Source: Pseudolabrys sp. FHR47 (GTDB lineage: Bacteria; Pseudomonadota; Alphaproteobacteria; Rhizobiales; Xanthobacteraceae). From it: a DNA stretch of 64,000 nucleotides. Under the pieces are notes generated by a model. That model saw nothing but the letters and a program-made list of their open reading frames with translations. It ran no database searches and was not told the DNA's origin. The position numbers and the translations under genes were made by a program. How positions within the stretch are numbered: the first letter of the stretch is position 1; each line of letters starts with the position of its first letter. Shown piece by piece: positions 45,106 to 60,747 of this stretch. The stretch covers positions 3,661,001 to 3,725,000 of the forward strand of contig NZ_CP039740.1 in assembly GCF_005153485.1 (NCBI RefSeq). Direction: 5' to 3'.

Positions 45106-45886
45106 GACCTTGCCCTGTGTAAGCGGCGATGACATCGGGGCGCACCGAGACTTCGGCATAGGTCCCTTCGGCGAGCACCTCGCCACGCACCATCACCGTG
45201 ATCTTGTCGGCGAGTTCGGCGACGACCTTCATGTTGTGCTCGACCAGCAGAACGGTGCGGCCGACGGCAAGCTCACGAATAAGCCGCGTGATCCAGCCGA
45301 TATCTTCACGGCCAAGACCGGCCATCGGCTCATCGAGCAGAAGGACCTTCGGTTCCAGCGCCAGCGTGGTGGCGAGCTCGAGGACGCGTTTGCGGCCGTA
45401 AGGCAGGTTGGCCGCAGCGACGTCGGAATAATCGGTCAGACTGAAACGGTCGATTAGTGCGGCGGTCCGCTCGGTCACCGCGCGATTGCGGGCAATCGTG
45501 CCGAGACAATCCCACGACAGCCCCTGCTCGCGCAGCAACGCCAGTTCGATGTTTTCACGGACCGTCAGGTTGCCGAAGACCGCGGAAATCTGGAATGAGC
45601 GCACGACGCCGCGCTTGGCCATCGCTGGCATACCGATGCGCGTTACATCGACACCGTTATGAAGAATGCGCCCGGCGGTCGGCGCCAGTTGCTTGGTCAG
45701 CAGATTGAACAATGTGGTCTTGCCGGCGCCGTTCGGGCCGATCACGGCATGCACACAGTGCGCGGCCAATTGAAAGTTGACATCCCGAAGAGCGTAGAAC
45801 CCGCCGAACGACCGGCTGAGCCCGCGCGCCTCCAAGGCAAATGCAGTGTCCGACATGGCACTATTCGACATGGCGCTATCCGACAT
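45098..45886 (-). CDS. livG: ABC transporter ATP-binding protein (LivG type)
   Basis: A 262-aa ATPase with Walker A GPNGAGKTTLFNLL, the LivG-type signature LPYGRKRVLELATTLAL and Walker B VLLLDEPMAGLG. The N-terminus contains three near-identical copies of a Met-Ser-Asp-Ser-Ala pentapeptide with three in-frame ATGs (45886, 45871, 45856), so the exact start is ambiguous. It is the first gene of a seven-gene co-directional run ending at the molybdopterin oxidoreductase. Confidence 0.93.
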   Translation of the reverse strand: MSDSAMSNSAMSDTAFALEARGLSRSFGGFYALRDVNFQLAAHCVHAVIGPNGAGKTTLFNLLTKQLAPTAGRILHNGVDVTRIGMPAMAKRGVVRSFQISAVFGNLTVRENIELALLREQGLSWDCLGTIARNRAVTERTAALIDRFSLTDYSDVAAANLPYGRKRVLELATTLALEPKVLLLDEPMAGLGREDIGWITRLIRELAVGRTVLLVEHNMKVVAELADKITVMVRGEVLAEGTYAEVSVRPDVIAAYTGQGHA

Positions 45887-45975
45887 GGCGCTGACGCCCT
45901 CCGTCGCTTGCGGCCTCAGAAAATCCAGCGAGGACCATCAGAGTTCAAAAGTTTCCTATCGTCAACTTATTCTTC

Positions 45976-46002
45976 TTAGGCAAATGTTTCTATTTTAGGC
46001 AA
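45976..46002 (-). promoter_or_regulatory. Direct-repeat operator candidate upstream of livG
   Basis: TTAGGCAA occurs twice, at 45976-45983 and 45995-46002, 19 bp apart (about two helical turns), in AT-rich DNA about 90 bp before livG. A related CCTAA-containing sequence lies before the cupin regulator gene near 41065-41085. It may bind that regulator. Confidence 0.35.
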
Positions 46003-46204
46003 CAGAATGGCGCGATATGCGGCAATGCCGCCGGCGCGCGCCAGACGCACCCGTCGCTGAAAAATCGAAAGGCTGAATGTAGAATTTGCAGGGTGGGATG
46101 ACGCGAAGGCCGTTCGACGCCAGCGCGCGCCGACAATCCAAAGCGCTGGCGCAAGCCGCTGATGGTACAGGGCCTGTAATCAGATCAGCATGTTGATGAG
46201 GATT

Positions 46205-46221
46205 TGGCGCTCCCTAGGGGA
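46205..46221. repeat. Left attachment site (attL) of the tRNA-Glu island
   Basis: TGGCGCTCCCTAGGGGA is identical to 60672-60688, the 3' end of tRNA-Glu. The match is exactly 17 bp, ending with mismatches on both sides. Confidence 0.85.
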
Positions 46222-46436
46222 AACGCCATCTTCTCTCCGAACTCATTGAACTTACGTAAGTTTTTGGCCACCCACTGCTGCTCTGTGTAGCAGAAAATGG
46301 CACGTCGGTCGAGTAGACCGCATGGGCGTGGAGCCAACGGCCCATCCCGGCACAAAGTTAGCGCCAATTCAGGCTGAACGAATCTGCTACTACTACTTCT
46401 AGCTGCCGTGTCTGCTCTCGCGTCTGGGCAATAAGG

Positions 46437-47480
46437 ATGCGTTTCGGAAGAGGCTCCACAAGAACGGTACCGCGTGTTCGGAGCCGTGTAACTGGCACCC
46501 TTCAATGGGAGGCCGCACGAGCAATTCCAATCCTGCAGGTAGCGCGGAGACTTGGCCTTAAGGTCAGAGGCGTATCTGCGATATGCCCGTTGCACGGCGA
46601 CACCGAACCTAGCCTGCACTTCTATCTGAAGACTAACAGTTGGCATTGCTTCGGATGCTCTAACGGCGGCGGCACCATTGAACTAGTTGCGGCGCTTACC
46701 AGGACCGACAAAAGAGGCGCCCTACAATGGCTGATGGGAGCGGGTGCTATCTCAGCGGCGCCTTCGAACACGCCAGTCGTTGCCACCCCCATTCAAGAGG
46801 CTAAGCGAGTCGGGAATAGTGACATATTGAACTGGCTCATGGATTCGAGCCCGCTGAGACCGCGCGGGATCAATTATCTGACGGGCCGCGGATTTTCTGA
46901 GGTGATCTTACGCCGTTTCGGAATTGGCCAAGTTGAAAGCGCGTCCGCACTTTTAGAAGCTGCTCAATTACGATGGACCTTAGACGAACTGAAACAGACG
47001 GGTCTTGTTACAGATACATATGGTCAAGCGCGCCTAATCTTTCGCAACCACACCATTCTGTTTCCTTTTCTAGACCAAGGTGCCATTCGTTACGTGCAGG
47101 GACGGGCGGCAAATGACAGTGATAAACCGCGCTGGATCAATCTGGCGGGAATTCAAAAGCCATTATTCAACGTCGATGCGATCAAGAGCCACCCGCGCTC
47201 GGATTTTATCCACCTCTGCGAAGGCATTACCGACACGATCGCCGCTGCTCAACTGGGCCTTACAGCAGTCGGGGTCCTAGGCGCTCATTCACTTACACCG
47301 GACCACGCTGAACTTTTTTCTGGTATGAAGGTGACGCTGCTTCCCGACGGCGACCGAGGCGGCGATCAATTTGAAAGACATGCCCTCGCCCTTCTCCGCA
47401 GATTTAACGCAAACGTCAGCGTCCTAAGGGTTCCGCGAGGAACTGACATTGCGGATCAGATTCGGCCGAAAAAGGATTAA
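46437..47480 (+). CDS. Compact DnaG-type primase (CHC2 zinc ribbon plus TOPRIM)
   Basis: A 347-aa protein with DnaG order but about half the length. The zinc ribbon is Cys50-x2-His53 and Cys71-x2-Cys74 (AICPLHG ... WHCFGCSNGG). A linker and DnaG-like core follow (RGFSEVILRRFGIG; ILFPFLDQGAIRYVQGR). The TOPRIM part has catalytic Glu262 (LCEGITD) and Asp304/Asp306 (LPDGDRGG). No helicase-binding domain is present. It is the first gene of the reverse transcriptase operon, ending 6 nt before it. A role in making RNA or DNA primers for the reverse transcriptase is inferred. ATG 46437 is the only clear start. Confidence 0.85.
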   Translation: MRFGRGSTRTVPRVRSRVTGTLQWEAARAIPILQVARRLGLKVRGVSAICPLHGDTEPSLHFYLKTNSWHCFGCSNGGGTIELVAALTRTDKRGALQWLMGAGAISAAPSNTPVVATPIQEAKRVGNSDILNWLMDSSPLRPRGINYLTGRGFSEVILRRFGIGQVESASALLEAAQLRWTLDELKQTGLVTDTYGQARLIFRNHTILFPFLDQGAIRYVQGRAANDSDKPRWINLAGIQKPLFNVDAIKSHPRSDFIHLCEGITDTIAAAQLGLTAVGVLGAHSLTPDHAELFSGMKVTLLPDGDRGGDQFERHALALLRRFNANVSVLRVPRGTDIADQIRPKKD

Positions 47481-47486
47481 TGCGTC

Positions 47487-50400
47487 GTGTCGTTATCAGC
47501 CTGGGACCGTTTATTACTGAGAGAAAATCTCTTCTGGGCTTGGCAAAAAGCCGCGTCCCTATATAGCCGGACTGAAGGGCTGCATAGTCAGTCGGACGTT
47601 GCTGCCTTTGATTTAGATTTGGAAGCAAATCTCGAGTCCATACAACAAGACTTCGCTCAGGGTACTTACACACTTCAGCGAATGACTCTGCTTCCCCAAC
47701 CTAAATCACCAGACGGTGATCAGCACCGTATGCGACAGAGCTTCCATGTGTCCGTTCGCGACCAAGTCGCCTGGATAGCGGTTGTTAACGCGGTTGGGCC
47801 GACGCTAGACATTGAGATGCCACCTTGGAGCTATGGGCATCGCCTTCATCGCTCAGCTTGGGTGCCAGATACATGGGAAGAAGATCAATCCACACGCATT
47901 GGGCCATATCGCCATAGCAGCGCTCAGCTATTTCGAAAATTTCGTCAAAGCTGGCCTCTGTACCGAAGACATATTGTGCTGACCGCCCGACAACTCGGTC
48001 ATGGCGCTATTAAAGAAGAGGAATTAGACGAAGGAGAGCGACGCGCCCTGAAGGCCGAACGCAGTCCGCTAAACAGAAGCAAACTACCATATCTAAACCC
48101 GGGATACTTTGGTGCGATTCGGCAGGGGCCGGGCGACGTGTATTACGGCTCACTAGACCTACAAAAGTTTTATCCCAGCATTTCGGTCGGAACCGTCCTT
48201 CAGCAATTTATAAAATACAGTGATGAAGTTAGATCGGACACGCGCATAGCCCAACTCGTCGAACGAATGCTGAACTTTAGCGTAAGCACTCATGGACTCT
48301 CTCCTAAAATGCGTGTGTGCGAGCCAAGAACCCCATCTGGCCGGTTCAATGGAGTACCGACCGGCCTAATGGTTGCAGGCTTCCTCTCGAATGTCGCGAT
48401 GTTGAGCGTTGATAAGCAGGTTAACCAGGAAATCCCGTATAAAGGCATTGCTCATTTCCGCTTCGTTGATGACCATACCTTCTTGGCACCTGACTTCGAT
48501 GTTCTGCTGGATTGGATGGCACGATACAATGTCATCTTACGAAATCATCTTGATGGCGTTTATGTAAACGATGAGAAATACCAACCTGAAGAACTTAAAG
48601 CGCTTCTAACTCGGAAGGGCCGCAAGAGCGGTCGCGCGATAGAAAAATTAAGAGAAAGCGCAAAGTCTGCCTGCAAAGTCGATCCAGTCTATCCACGGCC
48701 GCTTCTTACCCGAACTCTTGCTCAGCTCTCTCTACTCGGCAGTATCGATTTCGACACGCTCGACGATGAGGGCCAACACGGTCAAATCGAGCAGATAATA
48801 ACCCTTATGTTGACGGCCCTTCCTGATACTGAGCTTAGGGAGGACACACGGAAGACATATGCAGCCGCGCGACTAACAGCTCTCGTTCCGAAATTACGCG
48901 AGAATGTCGATCAGTGGGCGAGCAAAGCGAGAGACCTCAATAATGTTCGAGAAAAGAAGCGGAGCTTGGAAGAACGAAAACGGATATTGCAGAGTGGCAC
49001 AGCAGCAGCATCCGAACTCACCGCGATTGATACGGCGCTAGCCCTCCTCCATGCGCACGAGACCGAGCTCGAAAAGGAATCGCTCGCTGCGCAACAGAAG
49101 CTGCTAAAGGAGCGCCAATTCTCACACCGGAGAGCGTTCGAGCTTCTTTTCGAAGCATTCTGCGAACACCCATACAAAGGACGCCTGCTGGAACTTCTCT
49201 TTAGGTTCTGCAGCAGCACGGGCTATCCTGGACTGGGAGCAATTTTTAAGAAGATCGGTGAGCTGCAACAAGAATCATATCAGCTTGGAACCTATTTGAG
49301 AGCGTCGTCATTCCATGCTCTTGGATACTTAATAGCTCGTGCCGCTCTGGGCCTAGTTGACATCCATTCGAGTGAGAGACGTCGCGAGGCGTCGAAGATT
49401 TTTCTTACAAGCGTTGCCGCGCTCGGGCGTGACACATTTAGGTCTGATCCCGAATATTTTTCTCAGGATGCGCTGTCCTTTCTGGGCATTGGAGCGGCAA
49501 CGGCAGCATTTACGCTCGAAGAATATTTCACGCTCCATCCTGCGGACACAGCCCTTGGCGCCAAGTTAGCGCAGCTCACTTCTGACTCGGAAGACATCTC
49601 GGCGAAGCCCGCGCAGCGCTTCAAGACAATTGCAAAGGATAAGCTCGCGAGCTGGCTCTTTTGGGCAGACGGAGTCAGTTTACCGAAAGGCAGTACGGAC
49701 CCGAGCCCGCAATGGAGCTCTTTGGTCACTTCGCTCGATCCAAAAAAGAAATTGGACTGGAACGTGCTTCGTAGATATCCAAAGCAACTGCCCGATAGCG
49801 CCATTGCGTATTTGCAAGCTAATGGCCGCTATCTCGATGCCCTTGATCAAGGTTGGTTATACGACGTTCTTAGGGCGCGAAATGATGGGACCGCACTCCC
49901 ACGAAGGATGGCTCGCGTGCGTAACGCAGCCACGCAGCCAATAGGTCGCGCAGACTTGGTCGCATGGGCGGAGACAGCCAGGACGATTCACAGCACCGAT
50001 CCCTTCGACCCTCGCGCATCGGAGTGGACGGCCCTTGAGATACTCAACCAAGTTTTAGCGGCGATCGAAACATTCCAGTTGGGACCACGCGTATCGCTTT
50101 GCCACCCGACGAATTACACCGTTCCGGCAAGCTGGCTAAAGCCACCCCCGGACCCATGGAGTCGCTCATCGAAGATTTGGACGTGGGAAAGCTGGAAGAA
50201 TTTTGCGCGAGAGAAGCAAAGCCTCAAAGCAAGGCCTTCACGATCGTTAATTACTGACTATCGGTACAAAGAAGGCGCGGATTCAAAGGCTGAAGATGCA
50301 CTCCGAGCCGAGCTAATTGCTTACGGTCTATTACTCTTCGGTCTTTTGAGGCGCAGCTTCAACTGGCCATCTCTTTGGAATATTCGTGGACAGGAACGTT

Positions 50401-50768
50401 CTCACGTTTGGCTCGCCGGGATGGAATCACAAAGACTCACGATCTCTTCAGAAACGTTAGCCATACTTGACGGGCTCCTTCGACCAAGATCTTGGGAAAC
50501 CGTCTTGCTATTTGAAACAGCGCCGGGGTTTACCGGCTTTTCCAAGGCCGAAGATGTCACGAAGGGCGTTGTCCCCGATACGGCCCTGGATGTAACTCCT
50601 TTGACCACCCCTCGGCAGCTTAGGCATGCAATTGCGACGGCTCAACGTGCACTTGAAGCCGGGCAGGTTGCAGGATTTGAAAATCGCCCAAGGCAACTTG
50701 TGCCTGTCAATATTCGACACCTTGCTGCCACGGAAATTGCGGGCCAACCGCAGGACGACGAGGACTAA
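47487..50768 (+). CDS. Large reverse transcriptase, likely UG/DRT defence type
   Basis: 1093 aa. The RT core lies in about residues 50-370: N-terminal RT motif region (VRDQVAWIAVVNAVGP, MPPWSYGHRL), motif A SLDLQKFYPSI with Asp224, motif B PTGLMVAGFLSNVAM (291-305), and motif C FRFVDDH with Asp328/Asp329. An insertion rich in Arg/His sits between motif 2 and A (about 130-200). No maturase X or intron HNH domain is visible. A coiled coil at about 465-540 leads into some 550 residues of helical sequence I cannot assign. It starts with GTG 47487, lies between the primase and nitrilase genes (12-nt gap to the latter), and matches the style of unknown-group reverse transcriptases of DRT systems. 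Confidence 0.88.
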   Translation: MSLSAWDRLLLRENLFWAWQKAASLYSRTEGLHSQSDVAAFDLDLEANLESIQQDFAQGTYTLQRMTLLPQPKSPDGDQHRMRQSFHVSVRDQVAWIAVVNAVGPTLDIEMPPWSYGHRLHRSAWVPDTWEEDQSTRIGPYRHSSAQLFRKFRQSWPLYRRHIVLTARQLGHGAIKEEELDEGERRALKAERSPLNRSKLPYLNPGYFGAIRQGPGDVYYGSLDLQKFYPSISVGTVLQQFIKYSDEVRSDTRIAQLVERMLNFSVSTHGLSPKMRVCEPRTPSGRFNGVPTGLMVAGFLSNVAMLSVDKQVNQEIPYKGIAHFRFVDDHTFLAPDFDVLLDWMARYNVILRNHLDGVYVNDEKYQPEELKALLTRKGRKSGRAIEKLRESAKSACKVDPVYPRPLLTRTLAQLSLLGSIDFDTLDDEGQHGQIEQIITLMLTALPDTELREDTRKTYAAARLTALVPKLRENVDQWASKARDLNNVREKKRSLEERKRILQSGTAAASELTAIDTALALLHAHETELEKESLAAQQKLLKERQFSHRRAFELLFEAFCEHPYKGRLLELLFRFCSSTGYPGLGAIFKKIGELQQESYQLGTYLRASSFHALGYLIARAALGLVDIHSSERRREASKIFLTSVAALGRDTFRSDPEYFSQDALSFLGIGAATAAFTLEEYFTLHPADTALGAKLAQLTSDSEDISAKPAQRFKTIAKDKLASWLFWADGVSLPKGSTDPSPQWSSLVTSLDPKKKLDWNVLRRYPKQLPDSAIAYLQANGRYLDALDQGWLYDVLRARNDGTALPRRMARVRNAATQPIGRADLVAWAETARTIHSTDPFDPRASEWTALEILNQVLAAIETFQLGPRVSLCHPTNYTVPASWLKPPPDPWSRSSKIWTWESWKNFAREKQSLKARPSRSLITDYRYKEGADSKAEDALRAELIAYGLLLFGLLRRSFNWPSLWNIRGQERSHVWLAGMESQRLTISSETLAILDGLLRPRSWETVLLFETAPGFTGFSKAEDVTKGVVPDTALDVTPLTTPRQLRHAIATAQRALEAGQVAGFENRPRQLVPVNIRHLAATEIAGQPQDDED

Positions 50769-50779
50769 CGGGCAACGCC

Positions 50780-51664
50780 ATGCACGAATACCTAAGAGTA
50801 GGAATAGTCCAGTCTACGCTCGACTATCGAAGCGCATGGCGCTCATCTCCCAAGATGGATAGTCTGGAGGAAAAGAAAGCGGAAAACGAAATTGACCGAT
50901 CAATGAACTCATTCGCGGCAGAGACCAATAGACCCCAAATTATCGTCGCGCCTGAATTGGCCGCCCCACACTTTATGATAGCGAAATTGCAGCGCCATGC
51001 TGATAGACTTGAAGCAATCGTTGTAGCCGGAATGGATTATCGTCTATCGGATTTGGGGGGCCGTCTAACAGCGTCGAACGAAGCAATCTTGTTCGTACCA
51101 AAGCGGTGGTTGGGCAGCCGCACACGTTCCCCCCGAACGAGAAGGGTGATTGGCAAGACATATCCTTCGGATGCCGAGAAGCGAGCCCTTAGCGGCTTTT
51201 CGCGCGAATTTTCCGGCGACCCTTTTGTTTGGTTATTTGATGGCGGCGACATAGGACGATTCGCTATTGCCATCTGCTATGACTTTCTCGACCTCGAGCG
51301 TCTGGCGATGTATCGCGGACGCATTCATCATTTTTTCGTTTTAGCTTACAATCGCGACGTAAATTCGTTCTACTACGTAGCGGAGGCGTTCGCTCGCATG
51401 GCCTGCTGCAATGTGGTTGTATGCAATACGGGATATTTTGGCGGGTCTCTAGCTGTGTCGCCGTACCGAGAACCTTTTCGCAGAACGATATATCGGAGCG
51501 AGGGAGCTAAACTGTTTACGTCGCAAATTGTTGAGCTACCTGTCGAAAGCCTGGACAAACATCAAAAGGCGCCAACCGCAGATAAGAATGCCGAGTTCAA
51601 AGGGCTCCCTCCCGGGTACACCGAGCATCAAGTCTTGTTGAAAAAGGAAACTCCATTATTCTAG
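50780..51664 (+). CDS. Stand-alone nitrilase-family amidohydrolase of the RT operon
   Basis: A 294-aa carbon-nitrogen hydrolase. The Glu-Lys-Cys triad is complete: Glu59 in VAPELAAPHF, Lys126 in VIGKTYPS, Cys166 in AIAICYDFLDLERL. The strand CNVVVCNTGYFGGSLAVSP matches the C-terminal half of the fold. No signal peptide. In DRT type 1 systems a nitrilase domain is fused to the reverse transcriptase; here it is a separate gene 12 nt downstream. Substrate unknown; it may act on a nucleotide or amide metabolite or on the RT product. Confidence 0.85.
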   Translation: MHEYLRVGIVQSTLDYRSAWRSSPKMDSLEEKKAENEIDRSMNSFAAETNRPQIIVAPELAAPHFMIAKLQRHADRLEAIVVAGMDYRLSDLGGRLTASNEAILFVPKRWLGSRTRSPRTRRVIGKTYPSDAEKRALSGFSREFSGDPFVWLFDGGDIGRFAIAICYDFLDLERLAMYRGRIHHFFVLAYNRDVNSFYYVAEAFARMACCNVVVCNTGYFGGSLAVSPYREPFRRTIYRSEGAKLFTSQIVELPVESLDKHQKAPTADKNAEFKGLPPGYTEHQVLLKKETPLF

Positions 51665-51707
51665 CCGCAGTTTTGCGCAATTTCATTTGGCCATTTTGTG
51701 GCCAATG

Positions 51708-52679
51708 CTAACTTTTTAGGCTGCGATTAGAAAATCTAGTCATTGCGTCAAATCTTTCAACATAAGGCACGACGTCGCGACCGTAAATTTTGGTTCGGAG
51801 ATACTCGACTTCGCTATCATATAAATTTTCATCAACATCGATATACCAAGATTTCGGGCGGCCGTCGCTGCCGTCATTCCATCGATACCGACGTCGTTTC
51901 AGCTCCTCTTTAAAGTCAAAAGCAGCACCTTCCGCCCAAATACGGATGGTCTTACGCCGCGCCTGCTCAAGCAGCGCACCAAAGGCCGGACGTCCTGTTT
52001 TAGGTAATTTTGCGGCAAGAACTTCAAGAAGAGCGTCACAGTCATCTATCGCGCGATGGGCCGTGTGAAAGAGGCCGATTTCGCTGAGTAAATATCCAAG
52101 ACGCGACCCTTCGTAGCCTTGAGAACGCCAATCAATCTGGGTTGCCGAACATGCCCAAGGCTTTGACCGAAACTCAAGCCAGTAGCGTTCGGCAAATTCG
52201 CGGTCAAACTGAGCGTTGTGCGCAACAATAATTGCTGCGTCGGATATGAATGAACTGACTTTTTCTGATTCAATCCGATGACCAATTACCATTTCCGAAG
52301 TGATACGGGTTATGGCGGAAACATCTTCAGGAATCGGTTTGGATGGTTCATTAAATGAAGTGAACCTATCTATTACACCGGCAATCTGCCCGTCGGGGAA
52401 GTAGGAAAGCTTGACCATTCCTAGTTCTATGACCTCATCAGTAGCTGCATCCAGCCCCGTCGTTTCAACATCCAAAATTATCGCGATCTTTGTTTGTGTA
52501 TCGCCCTCAACTCGCGTGCAAATGTTTCTCGGCTTTAATCGCCGGAGAACGCGGTAGTCGCCGGTTGCCTCCAACAGGCGAACCATTTCAGTAGCGTCGA
52601 GACTGAGTTCTTGTTCCAAGCTTTGACTCCCCGGGGGTCGGCTGGGCTGTGGAGTAGCGAGATTTCCGTCAGGATACAT
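51708..52679 (-). CDS. DnaQ-like DEDDh 3'-5' exonuclease
   Basis: A 323-aa exonuclease. Exo I is AIILDVETTGLD (Asp70, Glu72), Exo II is VAHNAQFDREFAE (Asp159) and Exo III is HRAIDDCDALL (His208, Asp213), so all catalytic residues are present. The first 60 residues are an unassigned N-terminal part, and the C-terminal 100 residues form a second domain (KRRRYRWNDGSDGRPKSWY) often seen in accessory-region exonucleases. It is convergent with the nitrilase gene, 43 nt apart, and shares its low GC. Whether it belongs to the RT system is open. Confidence 0.88.
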   Translation of the reverse strand: MYPDGNLATPQPSRPPGSQSLEQELSLDATEMVRLLEATGDYRVLRRLKPRNICTRVEGDTQTKIAIILDVETTGLDAATDEVIELGMVKLSYFPDGQIAGVIDRFTSFNEPSKPIPEDVSAITRITSEMVIGHRIESEKVSSFISDAAIIVAHNAQFDREFAERYWLEFRSKPWACSATQIDWRSQGYEGSRLGYLLSEIGLFHTAHRAIDDCDALLEVLAAKLPKTGRPAFGALLEQARRKTIRIWAEGAAFDFKEELKRRRYRWNDGSDGRPKSWYIDVDENLYDSEVEYLRTKIYGRDVVPYVERFDAMTRFSNRSLKS

Positions 52680-52840
52680 CTTGGGGTCAAAAACGCGAAA
52701 CGTGACCTCCTAGCGGCGGCTACGCAAAATCCCCCCGTGCCCTCTCCCGATTAGGATTCACCGACCTCGGCGGCGGGTTTCCTGCCTCACCTCGCACAGT
52801 CTCGAAGAAAACGACATTGCGGCCCAGCAGCCACCCCGCC

Positions 52841-52857
52841 TGAGTCACTTTGACTCA
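52841..52857. promoter_or_regulatory. Palindrome 1 upstream of the small recombinase
   Basis: TGAGTCA-CTT-TGACTCA is a perfect 7-bp inverted repeat with a 3-bp centre, very similar to the site at 53066-53082. It may be an operator or a recombinase binding site. Confidence 0.55.
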
Positions 52858-53065
52858 TACACATATCGCCAAACGCACCTTTGGCAATTCGTGTTCAATG
52901 CCATTTCCCGCACCTCAAAAATGCCTGGGCATTTCGAATGGTTCGCAAATGCGTGACGTGATGTCGTGCGGCGGCCCCCGGCGCTTCCCCCCGTATGGCT
53001 GGGTCCTTTCGCAATGACATAAGGCTCACGTCAAACGGCGGCCGCCCACAAGCGCAAGACACGGG

Positions 53066-53082
53066 TGAGTCGTTTTGACTCA
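53066..53082. promoter_or_regulatory. Palindrome 2 upstream of the small recombinase
   Basis: TGAGTC-GTTTT-GACTCA is a perfect 6-bp inverted repeat in the same 17-bp format as 52841-52857 (15 of 17 bases identical), 225 bp away and 71 bp before the recombinase start. Confidence 0.55.
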
Positions 53083-53152
53083 TGGTGGCTTTCGTACTGT
53101 TCGTTAAATGTGCCTTGTTCGGACAGTCTCTCCATGAGGAGCCCTGAAGACA

Positions 53153-53776
53153 ATGCCCAAATCTCACCTGAAGCTCGTCGCTCCAAGCGCCATTAATCGA
53201 ACAGTTACCCCGAGACGCCTTCCCAACAAGGCCTTGCGCACCCGTGAGCACCTGACGGAAGCCGAAGTTGAGATGCTCATGGAAGCCGCCAAGGACAACC
53301 GTTGGGGCACCCGTGACGCCACCATGATGTTGCTAGCCTACCGCCACGGCCTGAGGGCTGCCGAGTTGGTTGACCTGCGTTGGGATCAAGTCGACCTACC
53401 TACGGCGACCCTCCACGTCCGTAGAGTCAAGCATGGCACCCCCAGCACTCATCCCATCATGGGTGACGAACTACGTGCCTTGCGTCGGCTAAAACGCGAG
53501 CAAAACCCTAAGTCACCTTTCATGTTCATCTCCGAGCGCGGGGCGCCATTCAGCACCGCTGGGTTCGCCCGCATGGTTGAACGTGCAGGCCAAGAGGCTG
53601 GGCTACCATTCAAGGCACACCCTCACATGCTGCGTCACGCATGCGGGTACGCATTGGCCAACAAGGGTCACGACACGCGGGCCCTTCAAGCCTACCTGGG
53701 TCACAAGAACATCCAGCACACCGTTAGGTACACTGAGATGTCTCCGACACGGTTCAAGGGCTTTTGGACGCGCTAG
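53153..53776 (+). CDS. Core-only tyrosine recombinase (FimB/FimE-like size)
   Basis: A 207-aa protein consisting almost only of the catalytic domain of the phage-integrase family. Catalytic residues are visible: Arg in YRHGLRAAEL, Lys in VRRVKHGTP, HxxR in HPHMLRHACG, His in LGHKNIQ and the nucleophile Tyr in TVRYTEM. The arm-binding and full core-binding domains are missing, as in FimB/FimE-type inverters. The gene is alone, downstream of paired palindromes. It could invert or resolve a local segment, or be a reduced integrase. Confidence 0.9.
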   Translation: MPKSHLKLVAPSAINRTVTPRRLPNKALRTREHLTEAEVEMLMEAAKDNRWGTRDATMMLLAYRHGLRAAELVDLRWDQVDLPTATLHVRRVKHGTPSTHPIMGDELRALRRLKREQNPKSPFMFISERGAPFSTAGFARMVERAGQEAGLPFKAHPHMLRHACGYALANKGHDTRALQAYLGHKNIQHTVRYTEMSPTRFKGFWTR

Positions 53777-53999
53777 GCAACACCTCATTTGGGATGAACC
53801 CATAGTCTCACTATCGAGTACCTCGCCGCATGCGCGGCTAACTACGCGCTATCACTTCGAAGCAGCACGCTCAGGGCGTGTTGCACGAGAACAACGCCCC
53901 ACCGGGCTCAATGAAAGCCGCCCTTAAGGGATTGTTGATTTCAGATTTTATGTGTCTAGTTTGATTGTCCACATCGCATCTTTCACATGGAGAGTGGAC

Positions 54000-54481
54000 A
54001 TGAAGATATTTCTGCGGACATCCTCAAGGCCGGGAGGTTTCAACCAGACCGATATTGAATATAAAATCGAGGATGGACGGAGTGTAAAGATCGAGGAGGA
54101 CCTTACCGAGACGCTCGCTTTGCTAAGGTTTGCTACTCTGGCTGCTGTCAATTTAAAGACAGGCAGCTTGATGGAGGTATACTCGGCACCTAACGCACTC
54201 ACAAACCCGTTCATCGAAAAATGGATTGAAGACTGGAGGCGGGACGGTTTTTTTCACGCCCGCGAGAACACCGAGAAAAGTGGAAGCAATTCGACGGACT
54301 GCTTCAGAGCCGTGGAATTCAATTGGTGCCACATTCTCTGACCAAGGCCGAACTTAAGAAGGTCTTCGAAAAGAAATCATACGTTGCGCCCGGGACCCCG
54401 GAGGAACATCCCTGGGACGCGCCCGAAAGTGTCGAAGATATGATCCGACGAGCTTTGGCAAAGCGAGATAGGTCTGACTGA
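54000..54481 (+). pseudogene. RNase H-like protein gene with a -1 shift on a T7 run
   Basis: The frame starting at ATG 54000 (GGAGAG upstream) encodes KIFLRTSSRPGG, ETLALLRFATLAAVNL and FIEKWIEDWRRDGFF, then closes at 54341 with unrelated residues. Shifting by -1 at the seven-T run 54248-54254 gives a continuous product (REKWKQFDGLLQSRGIQLV) ending at TGA 54479-54481, 4 nt before the next gene. The layout and WxxxDxxLQ-type helix resemble RNase HI folds, but the usual catalytic Asp residues appear absent. It is either a decayed gene, a sequence error, or a programmed frameshift (T TTT TTT is an ideal slippery site). Confidence 0.6.
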
Positions 54482-54485
54482 AGTC

Positions 54486-55235
54486 ATGGCATCGGCCTCT
54501 CAACGGCATCGCCGGGTGCGCCGGCTGAGGGCGCGGATTGTCAGCGACTCAAACAACTATTTGCCCATCTGCTCGATTCCTGGGTGCTCGCGTCCCACCA
54601 CGCGTGCAGCCAAAGTTGGGCTTGATAGCTTCACTTGCCGCTACCACCAGCAGCACAAGCAGCGGCACGGCTCACATTGGTGCAAGAGCCCATCTGGTCC
54701 AATACTCAGCCCCTATGTCTCCGCCGCGCTGAAGGTCATTCATTCTAATTGGGAAGCGCCTTTCGTGGCGGCCGCCGTAGCTGGTCTTGGTAGCGGCATG
54801 TCAACGGCAGGGCCTGCGGAGCCTGCTACGCGCTTAAGGGGCCTTCCACCCGAACGAAGGGCCAAGATCGCTCTAGCGCGGCTCCGCGAGGCGGGCGTTA
54901 AGCCCGAGCGCCTCCTTTCCATTGCGCTGGCCGTACATGCGCTAATCGCCGACGCACCCGAAAAGTGCCACCGGGTCTCGGAGTGGCGCATCGTAGCCGT
55001 CGCCAAGGCTGCTCACCGGCTCGCATCCGGCACTCACCGTCAATGGCCGCTCCATCAACCGGACGGGCGCGTGAAACACATCGTCTTGCACGCTTACCCA
55101 CGGTCCTCTGGGCGTGTCCTCCGGCACCTGGGAACGATGATCGAAAAGGAATGCGAGTGGGTCATTGAGCGGCATTTGGCGGAAGTGGTTGCCCTGAAGC
55201 GGGCCACTGAGCCGCCCACCAACGCTGCGGTCTGA
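54486..55235 (+). CDS. Putative zinc-binding island protein, unknown function
   Basis: A 249-aa basic protein. The N-terminus carries a Cys/His cluster (CSIPGCSRPTT, then FTCRYHQQH and HGSHWC), likely a zinc site. The middle contains helical segments (RRAKIALARLREAGVKPERLL) and the end a KHIVLHAYPRSSGRVLRHLG motif. I do not recognise the family. It follows the RNase H-like gene by 4 nt and precedes the polymerase-like gene by 116 nt, so the three probably form one transcription unit concerned with nucleic acids. Confidence 0.65.
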   Translation: MASASQRHRRVRRLRARIVSDSNNYLPICSIPGCSRPTTRAAKVGLDSFTCRYHQQHKQRHGSHWCKSPSGPILSPYVSAALKVIHSNWEAPFVAAAVAGLGSGMSTAGPAEPATRLRGLPPERRAKIALARLREAGVKPERLLSIALAVHALIADAPEKCHRVSEWRIVAVAKAAHRLASGTHRQWPLHQPDGRVKHIVLHAYPRSSGRVLRHLGTMIEKECEWVIERHLAEVVALKRATEPPTNAAV

Positions 55236-55351
55236 GAGATTTTCGCTATGCCTCTCTTGCGAGATATCAGGTCTGGGCTTGGCGGGGCGCACATGTTGGG
55301 CTTTCCGGTCACTCCGCGCCTGCAGTACGAAGCTCACAGGCGGGCGCTACG

Positions 55352-56665
55352 TTGAACAGTGGCAAAGTCATTCGGCGATTTGATCCATGCGTCCGCGCGG
55401 CGGATAACGGATTGAGGCGAGATATAGCCGCCTTCACGGCCTACCTTGAAGCCGAAGAGACCAAGTTGCAGCGACGCACTCGGGAACGCAAGTTGGCCGA
55501 CCGGGAGAAGATGCACTTGGCCGTCGAAGCGCTGGTCTGCAATCTGATTGCCGCCTATCAGATTGGCTCTACGGCGCTGCTCCACATACCCCTCGCCAAC
55601 GATGTTCTGCGAGGCACTCCCCGCTATCGGTCTCCCGTCTACGGCGTGCACTTTCGCAACCTGATCGCGCTACTGGAAAGCCTGGGCCTGATTAGATTCG
55701 TGACCAAAGGGTACAATGTTCGCAAATGGCGGCGGCGCGAGATCACGACCATTCGGCCGACCACTGCGCTTCGTAAGGCGTTTCCGGCGCTCGTCACCGA
55801 GAAGCCCGGCTCCTTGACCCAGGTCGATCCGGCCGAAACTGTCGTCTTGAAGGACCAAAGCGGTCGACTGGTTGCTTATCCCGAGACCCACTCTACGCGA
55901 CGATGGCGGGTCGAAATGAGAGCAATCAATGCCAGCCTGCGTAATGCGTCTATCTCGCTGGCCGGCCGAAACCGCGTGATCGATGACGACGGCTTCGCGG
56001 CCCGTCTTAACGCCAGAACTCTTCGGCGCATTTGGAACAATGGCGACTGGGAGCAGGGCGGGCGGCTATACGACGGCTTTTGGCAAACGATGCGGCGCGA
56101 GGAGCGGCTACCGGCTATCCGCTTGAACAACACACGCGTCGCTAATGTTGACTTCTGCCAGTTCAATCTCCGGCTAGCGTATGCGCTGGCAAAGGTGACG
56201 CCTCCGCGCGGTGACCTTTATGACGTGAGCGGAACGGACTCCGTGAGGCGCGATTGGAAGCAACTACGCGAGGGCCGCAAGAAGCTGACTAACGCGATGT
56301 TCAACGCGAAAGCGCCATTGCGGCGTTGGCCGGGCAAGACCGAACGGGAGCGCCAAGCGGTGGCGTCTTTCTTCCCGGCGGGAATCACAGCCACGGACGC
56401 AACAGAAGCGATACGGGCTAAACATGCCGCCGTGGCGGGCTACTTCGAGAGGGGCTACGGGCTCCGCTTCATGCGCATAGAGTCTGACATTCTGGTCGCG
56501 GTGCTTCTCGACCTCATTAAGCGGGGCATTACAGCCCTACCGCTGCACGATGCGGTTCTTGTGCAGGAACGCAATGCGAAGACCGCCAAACGGACTATGG
56601 AGCGAGAAGCAAAGAGGCGCATCGGAACGGTTATTCCAGCGCAGATCACAATGGCGTTGTGTTGA
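55352..56665 (+). CDS. Minimal family-A DNA polymerase-like protein
   Basis: 437 aa, TTG start. The C-terminal 200 residues carry the order of PolA palm and fingers motifs. Motif A is VANVDFCQFNLRLAYAL (Asp267), motif B is RKKLTNAMFNA (Lys310/311, in the O-helix position), a QGTxAD-like RIESDILVAVLLDL follows, and motif C is LPLHDAVLV (His399, Asp400; the usual Glu is Ala). There is no exonuclease domain and no thumb of normal length. The N-terminal 200 residues are helical and unassigned. A template-dependent or protein-primed polymerase role is inferred; activity is uncertain. Confidence 0.65.
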   Translation: MNSGKVIRRFDPCVRAADNGLRRDIAAFTAYLEAEETKLQRRTRERKLADREKMHLAVEALVCNLIAAYQIGSTALLHIPLANDVLRGTPRYRSPVYGVHFRNLIALLESLGLIRFVTKGYNVRKWRRREITTIRPTTALRKAFPALVTEKPGSLTQVDPAETVVLKDQSGRLVAYPETHSTRRWRVEMRAINASLRNASISLAGRNRVIDDDGFAARLNARTLRRIWNNGDWEQGGRLYDGFWQTMRREERLPAIRLNNTRVANVDFCQFNLRLAYALAKVTPPRGDLYDVSGTDSVRRDWKQLREGRKKLTNAMFNAKAPLRRWPGKTERERQAVASFFPAGITATDATEAIRAKHAAVAGYFERGYGLRFMRIESDILVAVLLDLIKRGITALPLHDAVLVQERNAKTAKRTMEREAKRRIGTVIPAQITMALC

Positions 56666-57399
56666 GCGCGCCGGCGGGAGGGGCTTGCGTGTCCTCTAAT
56701 GCAATAAGGAGCTATGCTAAGGGAAGTCCACAATGGCGCGGCCTTAGTGTCGCTCCTGAAGCCCGCCGGCCTGAATGTGGTCTTCCGGTGAGCCCGCTAA
56801 GGGGACAGGATTGCCGAGGCAGTCCCTCCATTCAGAGCTCACCTTCCGTGGGGCTTGATGGCCTGCCTTAGCAAGGTCCTTCAGCCACCCTCCCGTCTTG
56901 GAACTGATCACAAGCCGACCTTTGTGCTGGGGTGATCCACGAGTCCCACCTCCGCTTTGAGGCCAGTCCGCAAGGACGAACCCCTGAGGCTCTCCGGTGC
57001 TACTTCTTCCGCCGAGCTTAGTGGCCTACCTTAAGGGACCAGCTATTGGGTGCCGTTGTGCAGCATGGTGCGAGGCTGAGATGACATCATTAAGCTGCGC
57101 GGAGGGGTGACCCGCCCAACCCTTCGTGGTGGATATGCAGCGGGCTCTAGTGGGTGCCATCAAGCCTGCCCTGGGATGGTCAATACCAGTCCACCGGAAC
57201 CAGATGCAGGCATAGCGACGCAGCCTCCCGGCACCCGGTAGGAAGCGCCGCCATGGCTAGTCCCACCTGATAGGTAGCTCTGTGGTAGACGTCTTTCCGG
57301 ACTGGTATGAGGCCTTAACGGTGCGCTTTGCTAATCATAATAAATATGGAGTGCGTGCTACACTGAGTGCGGGCCCTCAGCAGAAGACGGATAGGGGTG
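56666..57399 (+). ncRNA. Candidate large structured non-coding RNA
   Basis: More than 700 bp with no supported ORF. Two long-range perfect helices can form: 56852-56862 with 57156-57166 (11 bp, GGCTTGATGGC) and 57183-57192 with 57299-57308 (10 bp). A GTCC-GCAA-GGAC hairpin with a GNRA tetraloop lies within 'CAGTCCGCAAGGACG'. This points to an ornate RNA of at least 460 nt. It sits directly upstream of an HNH endonuclease gene. Strand is inferred from the neighbours. Not matched to a known class by eye. Confidence 0.45.
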
Positions 57400-57960
57400 A
57401 TGCTCTATATCAAGACGAATCGCGGATGGCGGCCGCTACACAAATCAAATTATAGGATTGCAGATACCTGGCAGCGAGATGGCTTGAACATCGACGAAAA
57501 GGTCGCCGCGCTGAATGCTCATCAGTACTGGTTCACCGAACGTAACTATAACTCTTGGGAAGTCAAAAACCGACTTCTCAATAGCGCAAAGCACCGAGCA
57601 AAAAAATCTTCACTAAAATTCAGCATCGGGCCGGCCGACTTTGACATTCCACTGCTTTGCCCCCTTAGGCACGTTCTTCTCAAAGTCGGCAATGAACAAC
57701 ACACCGAGGATTCTCCCACGCTCGACCGCAAAGACCCCCGTTTCGGCTATATAAAAGGGAACGTTTGGGTCATTTCGCACAAAGCAAATCGACTAAAGGG
57801 GAATCTGACTCCGGATGAGCTAAGGACGCTTTGCGAAAATGTGCTGGCGCTCAATTGGGTCACTTGGACGAGCGACGATGAGCATGCGACTCGGAAGCAA
57901 GAGAATGCCAAGCAGAAAGCTCGATGGTGGGCTCTGTGGGGCAAGGGTCCGAAATCCTAG
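57400..57960 (+). CDS. Phage-type HNH endonuclease
   Basis: A 186-aa protein with the recognisable C-terminal block DSPTLDRKDPRFGYIKGNVW followed by VISHKANRLKGN. This is the signature of small phage-type HNH/His-Me endonucleases, where the Asn and His after the GYIKGN turn complete the site. The single CPLRH motif precedes it. I used ATG 57400; GTG 57367 is an alternative. It directly follows the candidate non-coding RNA, a layout reminiscent of mobile introns or HNH-linked RNAs. Confidence 0.75.
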   Translation: MLYIKTNRGWRPLHKSNYRIADTWQRDGLNIDEKVAALNAHQYWFTERNYNSWEVKNRLLNSAKHRAKKSSLKFSIGPADFDIPLLCPLRHVLLKVGNEQHTEDSPTLDRKDPRFGYIKGNVWVISHKANRLKGNLTPDELRTLCENVLALNWVTWTSDDEHATRKQENAKQKARWWALWGKGPKS

Positions 57961-58016
57961 AAATGCTCGCCCACTAGGTGTCTTCGAAAAACCGGACGCC
58001 CTGCCGAAATAAAGAC

Positions 58017-58253
58017 TCAAACTCGATTCTTCCGGAGCGGCACTAAAAGGCGATCCGGCGAGGTCTTCAAGGCGTGCGCGATCCTAGCAAGCACGACGAC
58101 GGTCACATTGCGCTTACCCCGTTCGACCTGTGAAATGTAGGTCCGATCAAGCCCAGCCTCAAACGCCAGCTCTTCCTGAGACAGCCCAGCAGCCTTCCGC
58201 TCGCGCTTCACGCGTTCAGCCACGACCCCGATAATGCCCGTCTCGTCGTCCAT
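58017..58253 (-). CDS. XRE regulator resembling restriction-modification C proteins
   Basis: This 78-aa protein is a single HTH domain: RVKRERKAAGLSQEELAFEA and the recognition part LDRTYISQVERGKRN. Length, the RTYISxxERGKRN wording and the neighbouring GACTATAGTC palindromes all match controller (C) proteins of restriction-modification systems. No methylase or nuclease of such a system lies next to it. It is divergent from a small membrane protein gene and probably controls both itself and that gene. Confidence 0.85.
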   Translation of the reverse strand: MDDETGIIGVVAERVKRERKAAGLSQEELAFEAGLDRTYISQVERGKRNVTVVVLARIAHALKTSPDRLLVPLRKNRV

Positions 58254-58290
58254 GGCGACAAGAGGGCCGCCATGATGACTTTTGGTCCAC

Positions 58291-58336: not shown

Positions 58337-58386
58337 TACAGAAAGACGCTTTTGATCTCATGTATGGCGGCTAGGTAGAGGTGGCG

Positions 58387-58698: not shown

Positions 58699-58730
58699 TT
58701 CTCGCGCCCGGTACGATGACCTTTGTGGCG

Positions 58731-60572
58731 CTATTCCAGCCACCTCAGCGCAGAAAGATCAATCGGCGCTTCGACCCTGTCCAACGCATCAGCAAGCGGG
58801 TTCACCGACATTCCTTTGCCGTAGCCGCGACCAACACCGCCGTTTGACGTGTGGCCCGTGAGGGCGTCGTGAACCTCCTCGGGCAGGCCCGCGTCTCGGG
58901 TCATCCGCTTAAAAGTATGCCTAAAAGAATGAAAGACCTTGGCACTATCTGAGACGCCGCACTTCTCTCTCAGGTAGCGCCCGAACCACTTTGACCATGC
59001 TGCCGACCGTGGTCGTTTCCCTTGGGCCTTTACGTTCGGCCACAAGCTCTGATCTTCGTCAGCCGATCCGCTGACAAGTCCTTTGCGATATCGAAGCAGC
59101 CCAATCCGCTCCAACTCACGATGAACTGGCACATGGCGGATTGACGAAACGGTTTTTGTTGATCGACCGCCACTCTTGCCAACATCGAAGTACCACCGCC
59201 CTGTCTCCTCATCTTGAGCCAAATCCCGTATGCGCAACTGAGCAATTTCATCAAGACGCATGCCCGAGAGGAACCCAATCAAGGGAAACCAAAATGCGGC
59301 CTCACATCCTCCGCCCACGGGGCGAACACGATCGGCGAAGACTGGCGAGCCGAAGATCGCCCTGAGGTCATCCCTGCTGAAGAAGGTACGCTCAGCTTCA
59401 CGCTCTTGAATGAGAAATCGAATGCCCTTCCCAAACGGATTTGCAAACCCTGCCACCTTGTCTAGATGCCCATCGCGCTCCGCTTGCGAAATTATCGCGC
59501 CAATGAGCGTCAGCATCTTGTTGACGGTGGTGGCACTGCGCGGCTGGTAAGGCGAGAGGTCGCGGGCCAACAGCTCTTTGAGAGGCAGCCTGCGGAGGCT
59601 CCTCGGGAGCGACCGGGGCACCCGAGCGACTTCATCGCGGAATTTTCGGGCAATCTCTCTGGTGATGTCCCCTAGACGTAGGTCTCCATGAAGCTCCTTG
59701 AAGTAGCGGATGACCTGCTCTGCTTCGACGATCGTATTGGAGTTCGGCCTCTTGGCCCCTTTTGCGCCACCTCCCGCACACCACCGTTCGAAAGCCTCCG
59801 ACAGCTTCGGGCCCCTATCCTTCACATGCTTTGGCGTCGGAACGATCTTGCCACGCTGCCGCTCGCTCATCGTGTCGTAGGCACGGACATGCGCCTCCAG
59901 CACCTTCATGGCGACCGCGCGAAACCAAGGAGCGGTTCGGTCCAGTGGAACCCCACGGCGCTTGAGAGCAATGCTCGTTTCCGCAAAGACAATCGTGGGA
60001 TCACGCCGAGCGAATGCCTCGCGGTACTCGTCCTCGAACATCGCAAGCGCATGGCCGTAGGCGTGGAAGTGGTCCTTCGCCATGCCCTTGGCGTTTGGAC
60101 CATGCGCCACCGCCATCGGAAGGCCGGGTACTGGAGGAATCGCCTCGCCCAAGTCCGGCCACAGCGCCCTTTCCTTCGCGTCCTGAAGGCGCCGCCGGTC
60201 GTCCCCGTCCTCGCGTTCCATCGCGTCGGCGGTCAGAAGTTCGACATGGACTTCGTCGGCAATCTCCTGAAGGTCGGCATCCGTCAGAACGTCCGAACGT
60301 GGCTCGCCAGCCAACGCCCTCACCGCGTGTTCGAACAGTTGCGTGGCCCGAAGCGCCTCTTGATGATCACGCCGCTTCGCCTGCTTGAAGTCTTTCGTCT
60401 GGAGCGAGCGCACGAGTTCGCGCTTGAAGCATCCCGTCTTGGCGTTGATCAGGTCGCCAAACGGCTCGCGCATGTGCGCCGGAGCCTCCTTGCCTGCAAG
60501 GCTTTCCGGCAATCGCTTTCGAAATTCGTAGGTGCCCGAAACACGCCGCTGCATGTAACTCAAAGCCGCCAT
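58731..60572 (-). CDS. int: Tyrosine integrase of the tRNA-Glu island
   Basis: A 613-aa site-specific recombinase. The long N-terminal half starts with a SYMQRRVSGTYEFRKRLPESL module of the DUF6538 type, with an arm-binding-like core region to about 380. The catalytic domain contains Arg in IGFLSGMRLDEIAQL, the HxxR in FHSFRHTFKRM, His in LTGHTSNG and Tyr near GRGYGKGM. It is transcribed away from the tRNA-Glu whose 3' end forms the right attachment site. AAGGGTGG precedes ATG 60572; the frame is open to 60608. Confidence 0.93.
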   Translation of the reverse strand: MAALSYMQRRVSGTYEFRKRLPESLAGKEAPAHMREPFGDLINAKTGCFKRELVRSLQTKDFKQAKRRDHQEALRATQLFEHAVRALAGEPRSDVLTDADLQEIADEVHVELLTADAMEREDGDDRRRLQDAKERALWPDLGEAIPPVPGLPMAVAHGPNAKGMAKDHFHAYGHALAMFEDEYREAFARRDPTIVFAETSIALKRRGVPLDRTAPWFRAVAMKVLEAHVRAYDTMSERQRGKIVPTPKHVKDRGPKLSEAFERWCAGGGAKGAKRPNSNTIVEAEQVIRYFKELHGDLRLGDITREIARKFRDEVARVPRSLPRSLRRLPLKELLARDLSPYQPRSATTVNKMLTLIGAIISQAERDGHLDKVAGFANPFGKGIRFLIQEREAERTFFSRDDLRAIFGSPVFADRVRPVGGGCEAAFWFPLIGFLSGMRLDEIAQLRIRDLAQDEETGRWYFDVGKSGGRSTKTVSSIRHVPVHRELERIGLLRYRKGLVSGSADEDQSLWPNVKAQGKRPRSAAWSKWFGRYLREKCGVSDSAKVFHSFRHTFKRMTRDAGLPEEVHDALTGHTSNGGVGRGYGKGMSVNPLADALDRVEAPIDLSALRWLE

Positions 60573-60671
60573 TGTGGACCACCCTTGTGGGCTACATTTG
60601 TGTAGCAAGGCGGCCTTCCTAAGCTCATGAAAGCTCAGGTTTTTCGTCTTTTCAATGGCTTGGCAAGATGC

Positions 60672-60688
60672 TGGCGCTCCCTAGGGGA
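60672..60688. repeat. Right attachment site (attR), 3' end of tRNA-Glu
   Basis: The 17 bp cover the end of the T-arm, the 3' acceptor strand, the discriminator and the CCA of tRNA-Glu, and are identical to 46205-46221. Confidence 0.85.
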
Positions 60689-60747
60689 CTCGAACCCCTG
60701 TTTTCGCCGTGAGAGGGCGACGTCCTGGGCCGCTAGACGAAGGGAGC
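60672..60747 (-). tRNA. tRNA-Glu(CTC)
   Basis: A 76-nt cloverleaf with encoded CCA. The acceptor is GCTCCCT/AGGGAGC with discriminator G. The anticodon stem TCGCC/GGCGA closes the loop CTCTCAC, giving anticodon CTC (glutamate, GAG). The T-loop is TTCGAGT. It is intact although the island is integrated into its 3' end. Confidence 0.96.

What the first reader, a model, noticed from the sequence alone, without database searches (positions are those of the whole stretch)
46437..51664. Three-gene primase / reverse transcriptase / nitrilase operon, candidate new defence system
Three genes sit 6 and 12 nt apart: a CHC2-TOPRIM DnaG-type primase, a 1093-aa reverse transcriptase with intact FVDD motif, and a nitrilase with intact Glu-Lys-Cys triad. 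Nitrilase domains are fused to RTs in DRT type 1 (UG1), and an unrelated AEP-type primase accompanies RTs in the UG10 group. A split nitrilase together with a TOPRIM primase in one operon looks like a distinct architecture. All active sites are intact, it lies in a mobile island, and its GC is low. A working model: the primase supplies primers, the RT makes DNA in response to phage, and the nitrilase acts as effector or modifies a product.
Basis: partly seen in the sequence, partly recalled or inferred. Interest (0 to 1): 0.95.

Follow-up and report, generated by a model that had tools for sequence, protein, structure and literature searches.

The report
Reverse transcriptase operon with exonuclease partner
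A bacterial genomic island carries primase, reverse transcriptase and nitrilase genes in a row, with a predicted 3'-5' exonuclease gene beside them, a kind of neighbour that recurs next to the same trio in many related loci; together they likely form a virus-defence system of an already catalogued but apparently untested group (UG6), in which the exonuclease would hold the system's own DNA product in check.

Summary
In detail: three intact genes (DnaG-like primase, 1093-aa RT, nitrilase) lie 6 and 11 nt apart. The RT is not a new group: it matches PADLOC's RT_UG6 over nearly its whole length (1066 bits), and PADLOC already lists such partners as RTasDnaG-like and RTasNitrilase. Its nearest solved relative is DRT1 (9YFD), for RT and nitrilase. 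The trio is rigid: all three genes, same order and strand, in 42 of 46 related loci. Primase and RT are fused in two distant lineages.

A DEDD-type 3'-5' exonuclease abuts the trio in 19 of 46 loci, in three subfamilies (PRK09182-like, SbcB-like, PolB-exo2-like) and on either side. The window has the first kind 43 nt away, on the other strand. The island is 14.5 kb, bounded by a 17-bp tRNA-Glu repeat beside a tyrosine integrase.

Likely mechanism (inferred): primase-assisted DNA synthesis by the RT, trimmed by the exonuclease, gates the nitrilase effector; phage upsets the balance. Defence was not tested; one relative lacks the primase, and the exonuclease is absent outside one clade.

The parts
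46205..46221 (+). att-like repeat, left end of the island (TGGCGCTCCCTAGGGGA)
   Evidence: exact 17-bp copy of the tRNA-Glu 3' end at 60672-60688
46437..47480 (+). DnaG-like primase (CHC2 zinc ribbon + TOPRIM, ends after TOPRIM)
   Evidence: RTasDnaG-like 345 bits; 2au3 E 9e-14
47487..50768 (+). UG6 reverse transcriptase: RT domain about 1-420, then a long alpha-helical region
   Evidence: RT_UG6 1066 bits; pLDDT 89
50780..51664 (+). stand-alone nitrilase, DRT1-nitrilase-like (E59, K126, C166)
   Evidence: (RTasNitrilase 365 bits)
51708..52679 (-). DEDDh 3'-5' exonuclease (PRK09182 type), proposed fourth component; D70, E72, D159, H208, D213 kept
   Evidence: (390 bits, cut-off 207)
58731..60608 (-). 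tyrosine integrase (DUF6538 + Phage_integrase) of the island
60672..60747 (-). tRNA-Glu (CTC), integration site; its 3' end 60672-60688 is the right repeat

Best explanation
This is a UG6-group, DRT1-like cassette on a tRNA-Glu island whose primase, reverse transcriptase, nitrilase and adjacent exonuclease are predicted to act as one phage-triggered abortive-infection machine. Inferred mechanism: the DnaG-like primase starts (or helps start) DNA synthesis by the RT. The resulting short DNA assembles or gates the nitrilase, as the protein-linked DNA does in DRT1. The 3'-5' exonuclease continually trims that DNA so that the complex stays dormant. When a phage disturbs the balance (helicase, DNA-binding protein or nuclease inhibitor), the nitrilase is released and hydrolyses an essential amide-bearing metabolite, stopping growth before phage release. 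Shown here: gene content, intact catalytic residues, conserved order, natural primase-RT fusions, and recurrent adjacency of exonucleases of different subfamilies. Not shown: any enzymatic activity, defence, the trigger or the substrate.
For: RT: RT_UG6 profile 2-924 of 925 positions; profile comparison with five DRT1 proteins 99.1% probability, E 6.7e-19 over RT residues 4-489, weaker with two UG5 proteins (95.7%, E 9.5e-9); nearest PDB sequence 9YFD DRT1 for the RT (E 6.6e-10) and for the nitrilase (E 2.7e-10). Trio in one order and strand in 42 of 46 loci. Primase fused to RT in P0088 and in L031, which sit in distant parts of the RT tree. Catalytic residues invariant. Distances of the three proteins correlate at 0.89-0.94 over 37 rows, 0 of 2000 permutations as high (shared species history not removed). 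Exonuclease: 21 DEDDh hits in 19 of 46 loci; 18 of the 21 overlap the trio or lie within 102 nt of it (measured between open frames), all 18 on its strand, although the first 1.2 kb on each side is only 17.9% of the 591,192 flank bases. In L002, the window's nearest relative, a PolB-exo2-type frame begins right after the nitrilase frame. That makes 19 of 46 loci (18 of 45 without the twin L024): 14 PRK09182-like, 4 SbcB-like, 1 PolB-exo2-like. In the 25-row clade holding the window, 18 of 22 scored rows have one (L022's is 762 nt away), and the tree needs at least 8 changes of neighbour type. PADLOC already has an RT-associated SbcB model, matched by 5 flanking ORFs. The window genome has no second PRK09182 match over the cut-off. 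Precedent: DRT1 makes protein-primed DNA that both activates and restrains its nitrilase (PMC13275509, sections read); ExoI holds DRT9 DNA and RecBCD holds DRT3 DNA in check (PMC13174585, passages).
Against: No function tested. L041 has RT, nitrilase and SbcB-type exonuclease but no primase found in the 8 kb upstream, so the primase is not always needed. Outside the window's clade none of 16 scored rows has a DEDDh exonuclease beside the trio, so it is accessory; within the clade 4 of 22 lack one. In the window it lies on the opposite strand, convergent, so it is not in the operon. DRT5 proteins make covalent DNA without DRT1's serine (PMC13275509), so the missing serine does not prove primase priming. 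A protein-priming residue in UG6 is not excluded (Y141 in a conserved loop of low predicted confidence, 98 of 101; T408, T410, S415 in 101 of 101).
Confidence: 0.4

Rival explanations
1. Protein-primed, template-free synthesis exactly as in DRT1: the RT primes on its own residue, and the primase is a sensor or partner of phage replication forks, not the primer maker.
For: DRT1 and DRT5 are protein-primed (PMC13275509, section 5). UG6 shares the DRT1 RT core. Invariant hydroxyls exist (T408, T410, S415 in 101 of 101 rows; Y141 in 98 of 101). L041 lacks the primase.
Against: The stretch aligned with the DRT1 S402 region (about D399-V401) has Ser/Thr/Tyr in at most 12% of rows, and no position 366-403 exceeds 38% (the alignment is weak there). 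T410 aligns with a Thr kept in all five DRT1 proteins compared, and residues 409-419 are a predicted helix. Primase catalytic residues are invariant in 44 of 44 rows, which a mere scaffold would not need.
Confidence: 0.25
2. The exonuclease is only island cargo or a proofreading helper for the RT, and the trio alone is the system.
For: No DEDDh exonuclease beside the trio in 16 of 16 scored rows outside the window's clade; convergent orientation in the window; a preprint title says that a PrimPol-RT hybrid has its own proofreading exonuclease (reference seen, paper not held).
Against: 18 of 21 DEDDh hits abut or overlap the trio, all 18 on its strand; three subfamilies take the same place; distances of PRK09182-like exonuclease and RT correlate (r 0.83, 12 rows, 0 of 5000 permutations; shared species history not removed).
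Confidence: 0.25
3. Not defence: a DNA-synthesis module used by the mobile island itself (for example replication or repair of the element).
For: Primase, polymerase and exonuclease are replication-type enzymes; the island has two integrase genes.
Against: PADLOC files all three as DRT parts; the nearest solved relatives are a proven antiphage RT and its nitrilase effector (PMC13275509); a nitrilase has no evident role in replication (inference).
Confidence: 0.07

Closest known systems
UG6 reverse transcriptases (PADLOC RT_UG6; partner models RTasDnaG-like, RTasNitrilase, RTasSbcB; UG6 in myRT, PMC8934634, passages)
   Same: RT matches the profile over nearly its whole length (1066 bits); both partner models match (345 and 365 bits); myRT lists a UG6 RT beside a nitrilase
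   Different: PADLOC's RT-associated exonuclease model is SbcB; the window and 14 other loci carry a PRK09182-like one, for which the window's and L004's proteins hit no RT-associated model. No functional study of UG6 found in the library searched
DRT1 (UG1; RT-nitrilase; PDB 9YFD)
   Same: homologous RT core and homologous nitrilase with shared ICYD, AYN and NTG-GGS stretches; a long helical region after the RT domain in both (PMC13275509)
   Different: nitrilase is a separate gene here; a primase and an exonuclease are added; no clear counterpart of priming serine 402
UG5 / DRT5 RT-nitrilase
   Same: RT core with the SYGNRL-like motif, nitrilase
   Different: nitrilase fused in UG5; weaker similarity (95.7%); our primase hits no UG5 model
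DRT7 / UG10 primase-RT
   Same: primase joined to an antiphage RT (PMC13213688, part 1 of 2 read)
   Different: UG10 has a primase-polymerase (AEP-type) domain, here a DnaG/TOPRIM primase of unrelated fold

Membership tests
UG6 RT group | full-length match to the RT_UG6 profile | tested here: met
   1066 bits, positions 2-924 of 925
UG6 RT group | RT-associated DnaG-like primase and nitrilase genes adjacent | tested here: met
   that these PADLOC partner models were made for UG6 follows from adjacency here, not from a paper read
Class 3 UG/Abi RT | RT and nitrilase or phosphohydrolase in one multidomain protein (wording of PMC13275509) | tested here: not met
   nitrilase is a separate frame in the window and in all 44 loci where it was found
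DRT1 | RT-nitrilase fusion | tested here: not met
DRT1 | conserved priming serine 402 | tested here: inconclusive
   no conserved hydroxyl in the aligned stretch, but the alignment of this loop is weak
DRT1 | homologous RT core and nitrilase | tested here: met
DRT7/UG10 | primase-polymerase (AEP-type) domain fused to RT | tested here: not met
   the primase is Zn_ribbon_DnaG, DNAG_N and Toprim_2, on its own gene
Defence-associated RT (any) | protects against phage, dependent on RT activity | not testable with these tools
   needs phage challenge
DRT1-like mechanism | DNA product gates the nitrilase | not testable with these tools
   needs biochemistry

The most novel reading that the evidence does not exclude
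A self-guarded DRT: an RT that makes its DNA from primers laid by its own DnaG-type primase and carries its own exonuclease as the brake, where DRT3 and DRT9 rely on host RecBCD or ExoI. Phage attack on exonucleases or DNA ends would release the nitrilase killer. The brake has been swapped several times between exonuclease subfamilies, so what matters is the 3'-5' trimming, not the particular protein.
Probability: 0.3. Interest if true: 0.82.

Novelty: new variant of a known kind. Interest (0 to 1): 0.58.

Why it matters
Recent work shows that host nucleases decide when DRT DNA becomes toxic (PMC13174585, passages). If UG6 systems carry their own replaceable exonuclease, that guard principle is built into the cassette and can be tested by single gene removals. 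A DnaG-type primase serving an antiphage RT would be a second route, unrelated to the AEP type of DRT7, for starting non-genomic DNA, and the separate nitrilase offers a clean way to find the unknown DRT1-type substrate.

Tried and rejected
New RT group: rejected, RT_UG6 fits over nearly its whole length. ncRNA-templated (class 2-like) system: at E up to 0.5 Rfam gave only the tRNA and one match far below its gathering score in 45800-61000; the genes leave no room between them; upstream of the primase, conservation among six betaproteobacterial loci fades within about 150-200 columns and looked like promoter and ribosome site by eye in seven; an ncRNA is not excluded. UG29 as a relative with a fused primase: PADLOC's RT_UG29 profile matches our primase at the profile's N-terminus, but the genome search with it rang on DnaG-like proteins, also in 4 of 14 control genomes, so it was dropped. 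Empty site: of 30 relatives searched I fetched 8 stretches of 3.5-16 kb; tRNA-Glu stays near the pseudouridine synthase gene in 8 of 8, none with an island gene, but the left flank is not syntenic, so no empty site was shown. Priming at T408/T410/S415: argued against above, not settled. Foldseek on the RT model gave group II intron, DGR and DRT RTs; 9YFD did not appear, and the library stops in April 2026. PADLOC flank tally: DEDDh 10 and RTasSbcB 5 of 121 ORFs, other listed families 1-3 each, so no general defence-island claim is made.

Rows dropped or not covered: the 121 flanking ORFs are those up to about 600 aa of the 163 selected; L017, L043, L044-L046 have none among them, L024 and L047 were left out beforehand, and ORFs overlapping the trio by more than 60 nt were not selected. 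L009, L030, L036, L038, L047 (RT hits in two frames) are missing from the RT residue counts and the tree; L024 (twin of L005) and, L031 were dropped too; L037, L044, L017, P0082 and P0088 are unscored for the exonuclease. The tree is a quick one with long-branch warnings. In one search I labelled L023 (PDDEXK_1) and L025 (DUF2779) 'other nuclease', the latter without evidence that DUF2779 is a nuclease, and L020 (YhcG nuclease upstream), L026 and L028 (NERD-domain genes upstream) 'none'; the 8 changes depend on these labels and include presence or absence. Only the window's exonuclease was scanned with NCBIfam; 'PRK09182-like' for the others rests on E under 1e-100. UG5 loci with stops inside (L089, L091) and DRT1 loci L085-L087 were not used.

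Literature: Mestre et al. 2022 (the UG/Abi survey) is not held; what it says on UG6 I could not check. That UG6 function is unpublished rests only. DRT7 preprints not held. PMC13275509: outline, abstract and sections 4-7, 9, 10; PMC13213688: part 1 of 2; PMC8934634, PMC13174585, PMC12632851, PMC12489045, PMC12483538, PMC13314766: passages only.
Full report
What is there. Three + strand genes, 46437-47480, 47487-50768 and 50780-51664, lie 6 and 11 nt apart. They encode a zinc-ribbon/TOPRIM primase, a 1093-aa reverse transcriptase and a 294-aa nitrilase. The primase stops right after the TOPRIM domain; the match to DnaG 2au3 ends at residue 331 of that 407-residue chain, so the last part of the polymerase domain and the helicase-binding part of ordinary DnaG (recalled) are missing. 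The genome keeps a normal DnaG elsewhere (413.8 bits, over the cut-off), so this is an extra primase.

The island. A 17-bp sequence at the 3' end of tRNA-Glu (60672-60688) is repeated exactly at 46205-46221, just upstream of the trio. A tyrosine integrase (58731-60608) sits beside the tRNA. GC is 51-54% over the trio and 59-68% in the window outside the island. This marks a 14.5-kb integrated island with the trio at the far end from the integrase. In 8 of 8 stretches fetched from relatives the tRNA-Glu lies near the pseudouridine synthase gene with no island gene found; the left flank differs, so a clean empty site was not seen.

Which family. PADLOC's RT_UG6 model fits the RT almost end to end (1066 bits), far ahead of Drt1a (62 bits); the primase and nitrilase match RTasDnaG-like (345 bits) and RTasNitrilase (365 bits). 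So the group and both kinds of partner were catalogued by 2023. In the papers held, the UG6 RT group turned up only in a classification paper (PMC8934634), which lists one UG6 RT beside a nitrilase; searches for a functional study found none. The nearest solved protein is DRT1, for the RT (E 6.6e-10) and for the nitrilase (E 2.7e-10); a profile comparison with five DRT1 proteins covers RT residues 4-489 (99.1%, E 6.7e-19), with two UG5 proteins more weakly. The RT model (pLDDT 89, pTM 0.91) shows an RT domain to about residue 420, then a long helical region, as described for DRT1 (PMC13275509, section 7).

Conservation of the trio. A scan of one genome per species gave 46 related loci. Primase, RT and nitrilase all occur, in that order and strand, in 42 of 46. 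The four exceptions: L037 and L044 are cut by contig ends, L047 holds an RT in pieces without partners, and L041 has no primase found although 8 kb upstream is held. Hosts include Alphaproteobacteria, Betaproteobacteria, Bacteroidota, Campylobacterota, Chlorobiota, Elusimicrobiota, Verrucomicrobiota and Acetivibrio (titles). Two natural fusions of primase to RT exist (P0088, 1423 aa; L031, an open frame of 1480 aa), in far-apart parts of the RT tree. Catalytic residues are invariant: primase 44 of 44 rows, RT 42 of 42, nitrilase 45 of 45. The system is rare: 1 of 385 genomes of the class at E up to 1e-50, the window's own.

The missed fourth gene. The gene 43 nt beyond the nitrilase, on the other strand (51708-52679), is a DEDDh 3'-5' exonuclease of the PRK09182 type (390 bits against a cut-off of 207). 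Among 121 flanking ORFs of the related loci, the commonest family in both Pfam and PADLOC is this exonuclease fold (10 ORFs); five ORFs match PADLOC's RTasSbcB, so an SbcB neighbour of such RTs was already known to PADLOC. A dedicated search found 21 DEDDh hits in 19 of 46 loci; 18 of the 21, in 18 loci, overlap the trio or lie within 102 nt of it (between open frames), all on its strand, 11 after the nitrilase and 7 before the primase. The first 1.2 kb on each side makes up 17.9% of the 591,192 flank bases, so chance would put about 4 of 21 there. The closest relative, L002, has a PolB-exo2-type frame directly after the nitrilase. Thus three subfamilies of 3'-5' exonuclease fill the same place: 14 PRK09182-like, 4 SbcB-like and 1 PolB-exo2-like in 19 of 46 loci. 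In the window's clade 18 of 22 scored rows have one (one of them, L022, 762 nt away and on the other strand); outside it none of 16 scored rows has a DEDDh exonuclease, though L023 and L020 have other nuclease genes there. The residues D70, E72, D159, H208 and D213 are kept in 20 or 21 of 21 rows.

Mechanism. Known precedent: DRT1 makes template-free, protein-primed DNA; the DNA drives tetramers and filaments that both prepare and restrain the nitrilase, and phage infection is proposed to release it (PMC13275509, abstract and sections 4-7, 9, 10). ExoI keeps DRT9 DNA, and RecBCD keeps DRT3 DNA, below the toxic level; phage inhibitors such as Gam lift the RecBCD brake (PMC13174585, passages). 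For UG6 I infer: the primase provides or assists the start, the RT extends, the exonuclease trims, the DNA-bearing complex holds the nitrilase dormant, and phage tips the balance. The DRT1 priming serine has no clear counterpart in UG6: at positions 366-403 no column has more than 38% Ser/Thr/Tyr, and the aligned stretch D399-V401 at most 12%; the alignment in that loop is weak, and DRT5 also lacks the serine. All functional steps are untested.

Verdict. The claim of a new system does not: it is UG6. What is new here, as far as my calls reach, is that the exonuclease beside the trio recurs in the window's clade and is interchangeable between subfamilies, the two primase-RT fusions, and the island ends.

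Noticed in passing
46205-46221 and 60672-60688: Exact 17-bp direct repeat of the tRNA-Glu 3' end marks a 14.5-kb island.
   Followed up: yes
53153-53776: A second, short tyrosine recombinase gene (207 aa) lies inside the island.
   Followed up: no
54486-55235, 55352-56665, 57367-57960: Three island ORFs (249, 437 and 197 aa) without Pfam or PADLOC matches.
   Followed up: partly
L041:6870-7481 and L025:1465-2223: An SRAP (SOS response associated peptidase) gene lies upstream of the RT in L041, where no primase was found, and upstream of the primase in L025.
   Followed up: partly
window 47487-50768, residues 122-153 of the RT: A strongly conserved stretch around GPYRH has pLDDT under 50 in the model; a possible priming or partner-binding loop.
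   Followed up: no
L023:12192-12950 and L020:5782-6933: A PD-(D/E)XK nuclease directly after the nitrilase in an Elusimicrobia locus, and a YhcG nuclease directly before the primase in a Bacteroidales locus: perhaps further substitutes for the exonuclease.
   Followed up: partly
PADLOC RT_UG29 profile: RT_UG29 (2280 positions) begins with a DnaG-like primase stretch; a possible second primase-RT lineage.
   Followed up: partly
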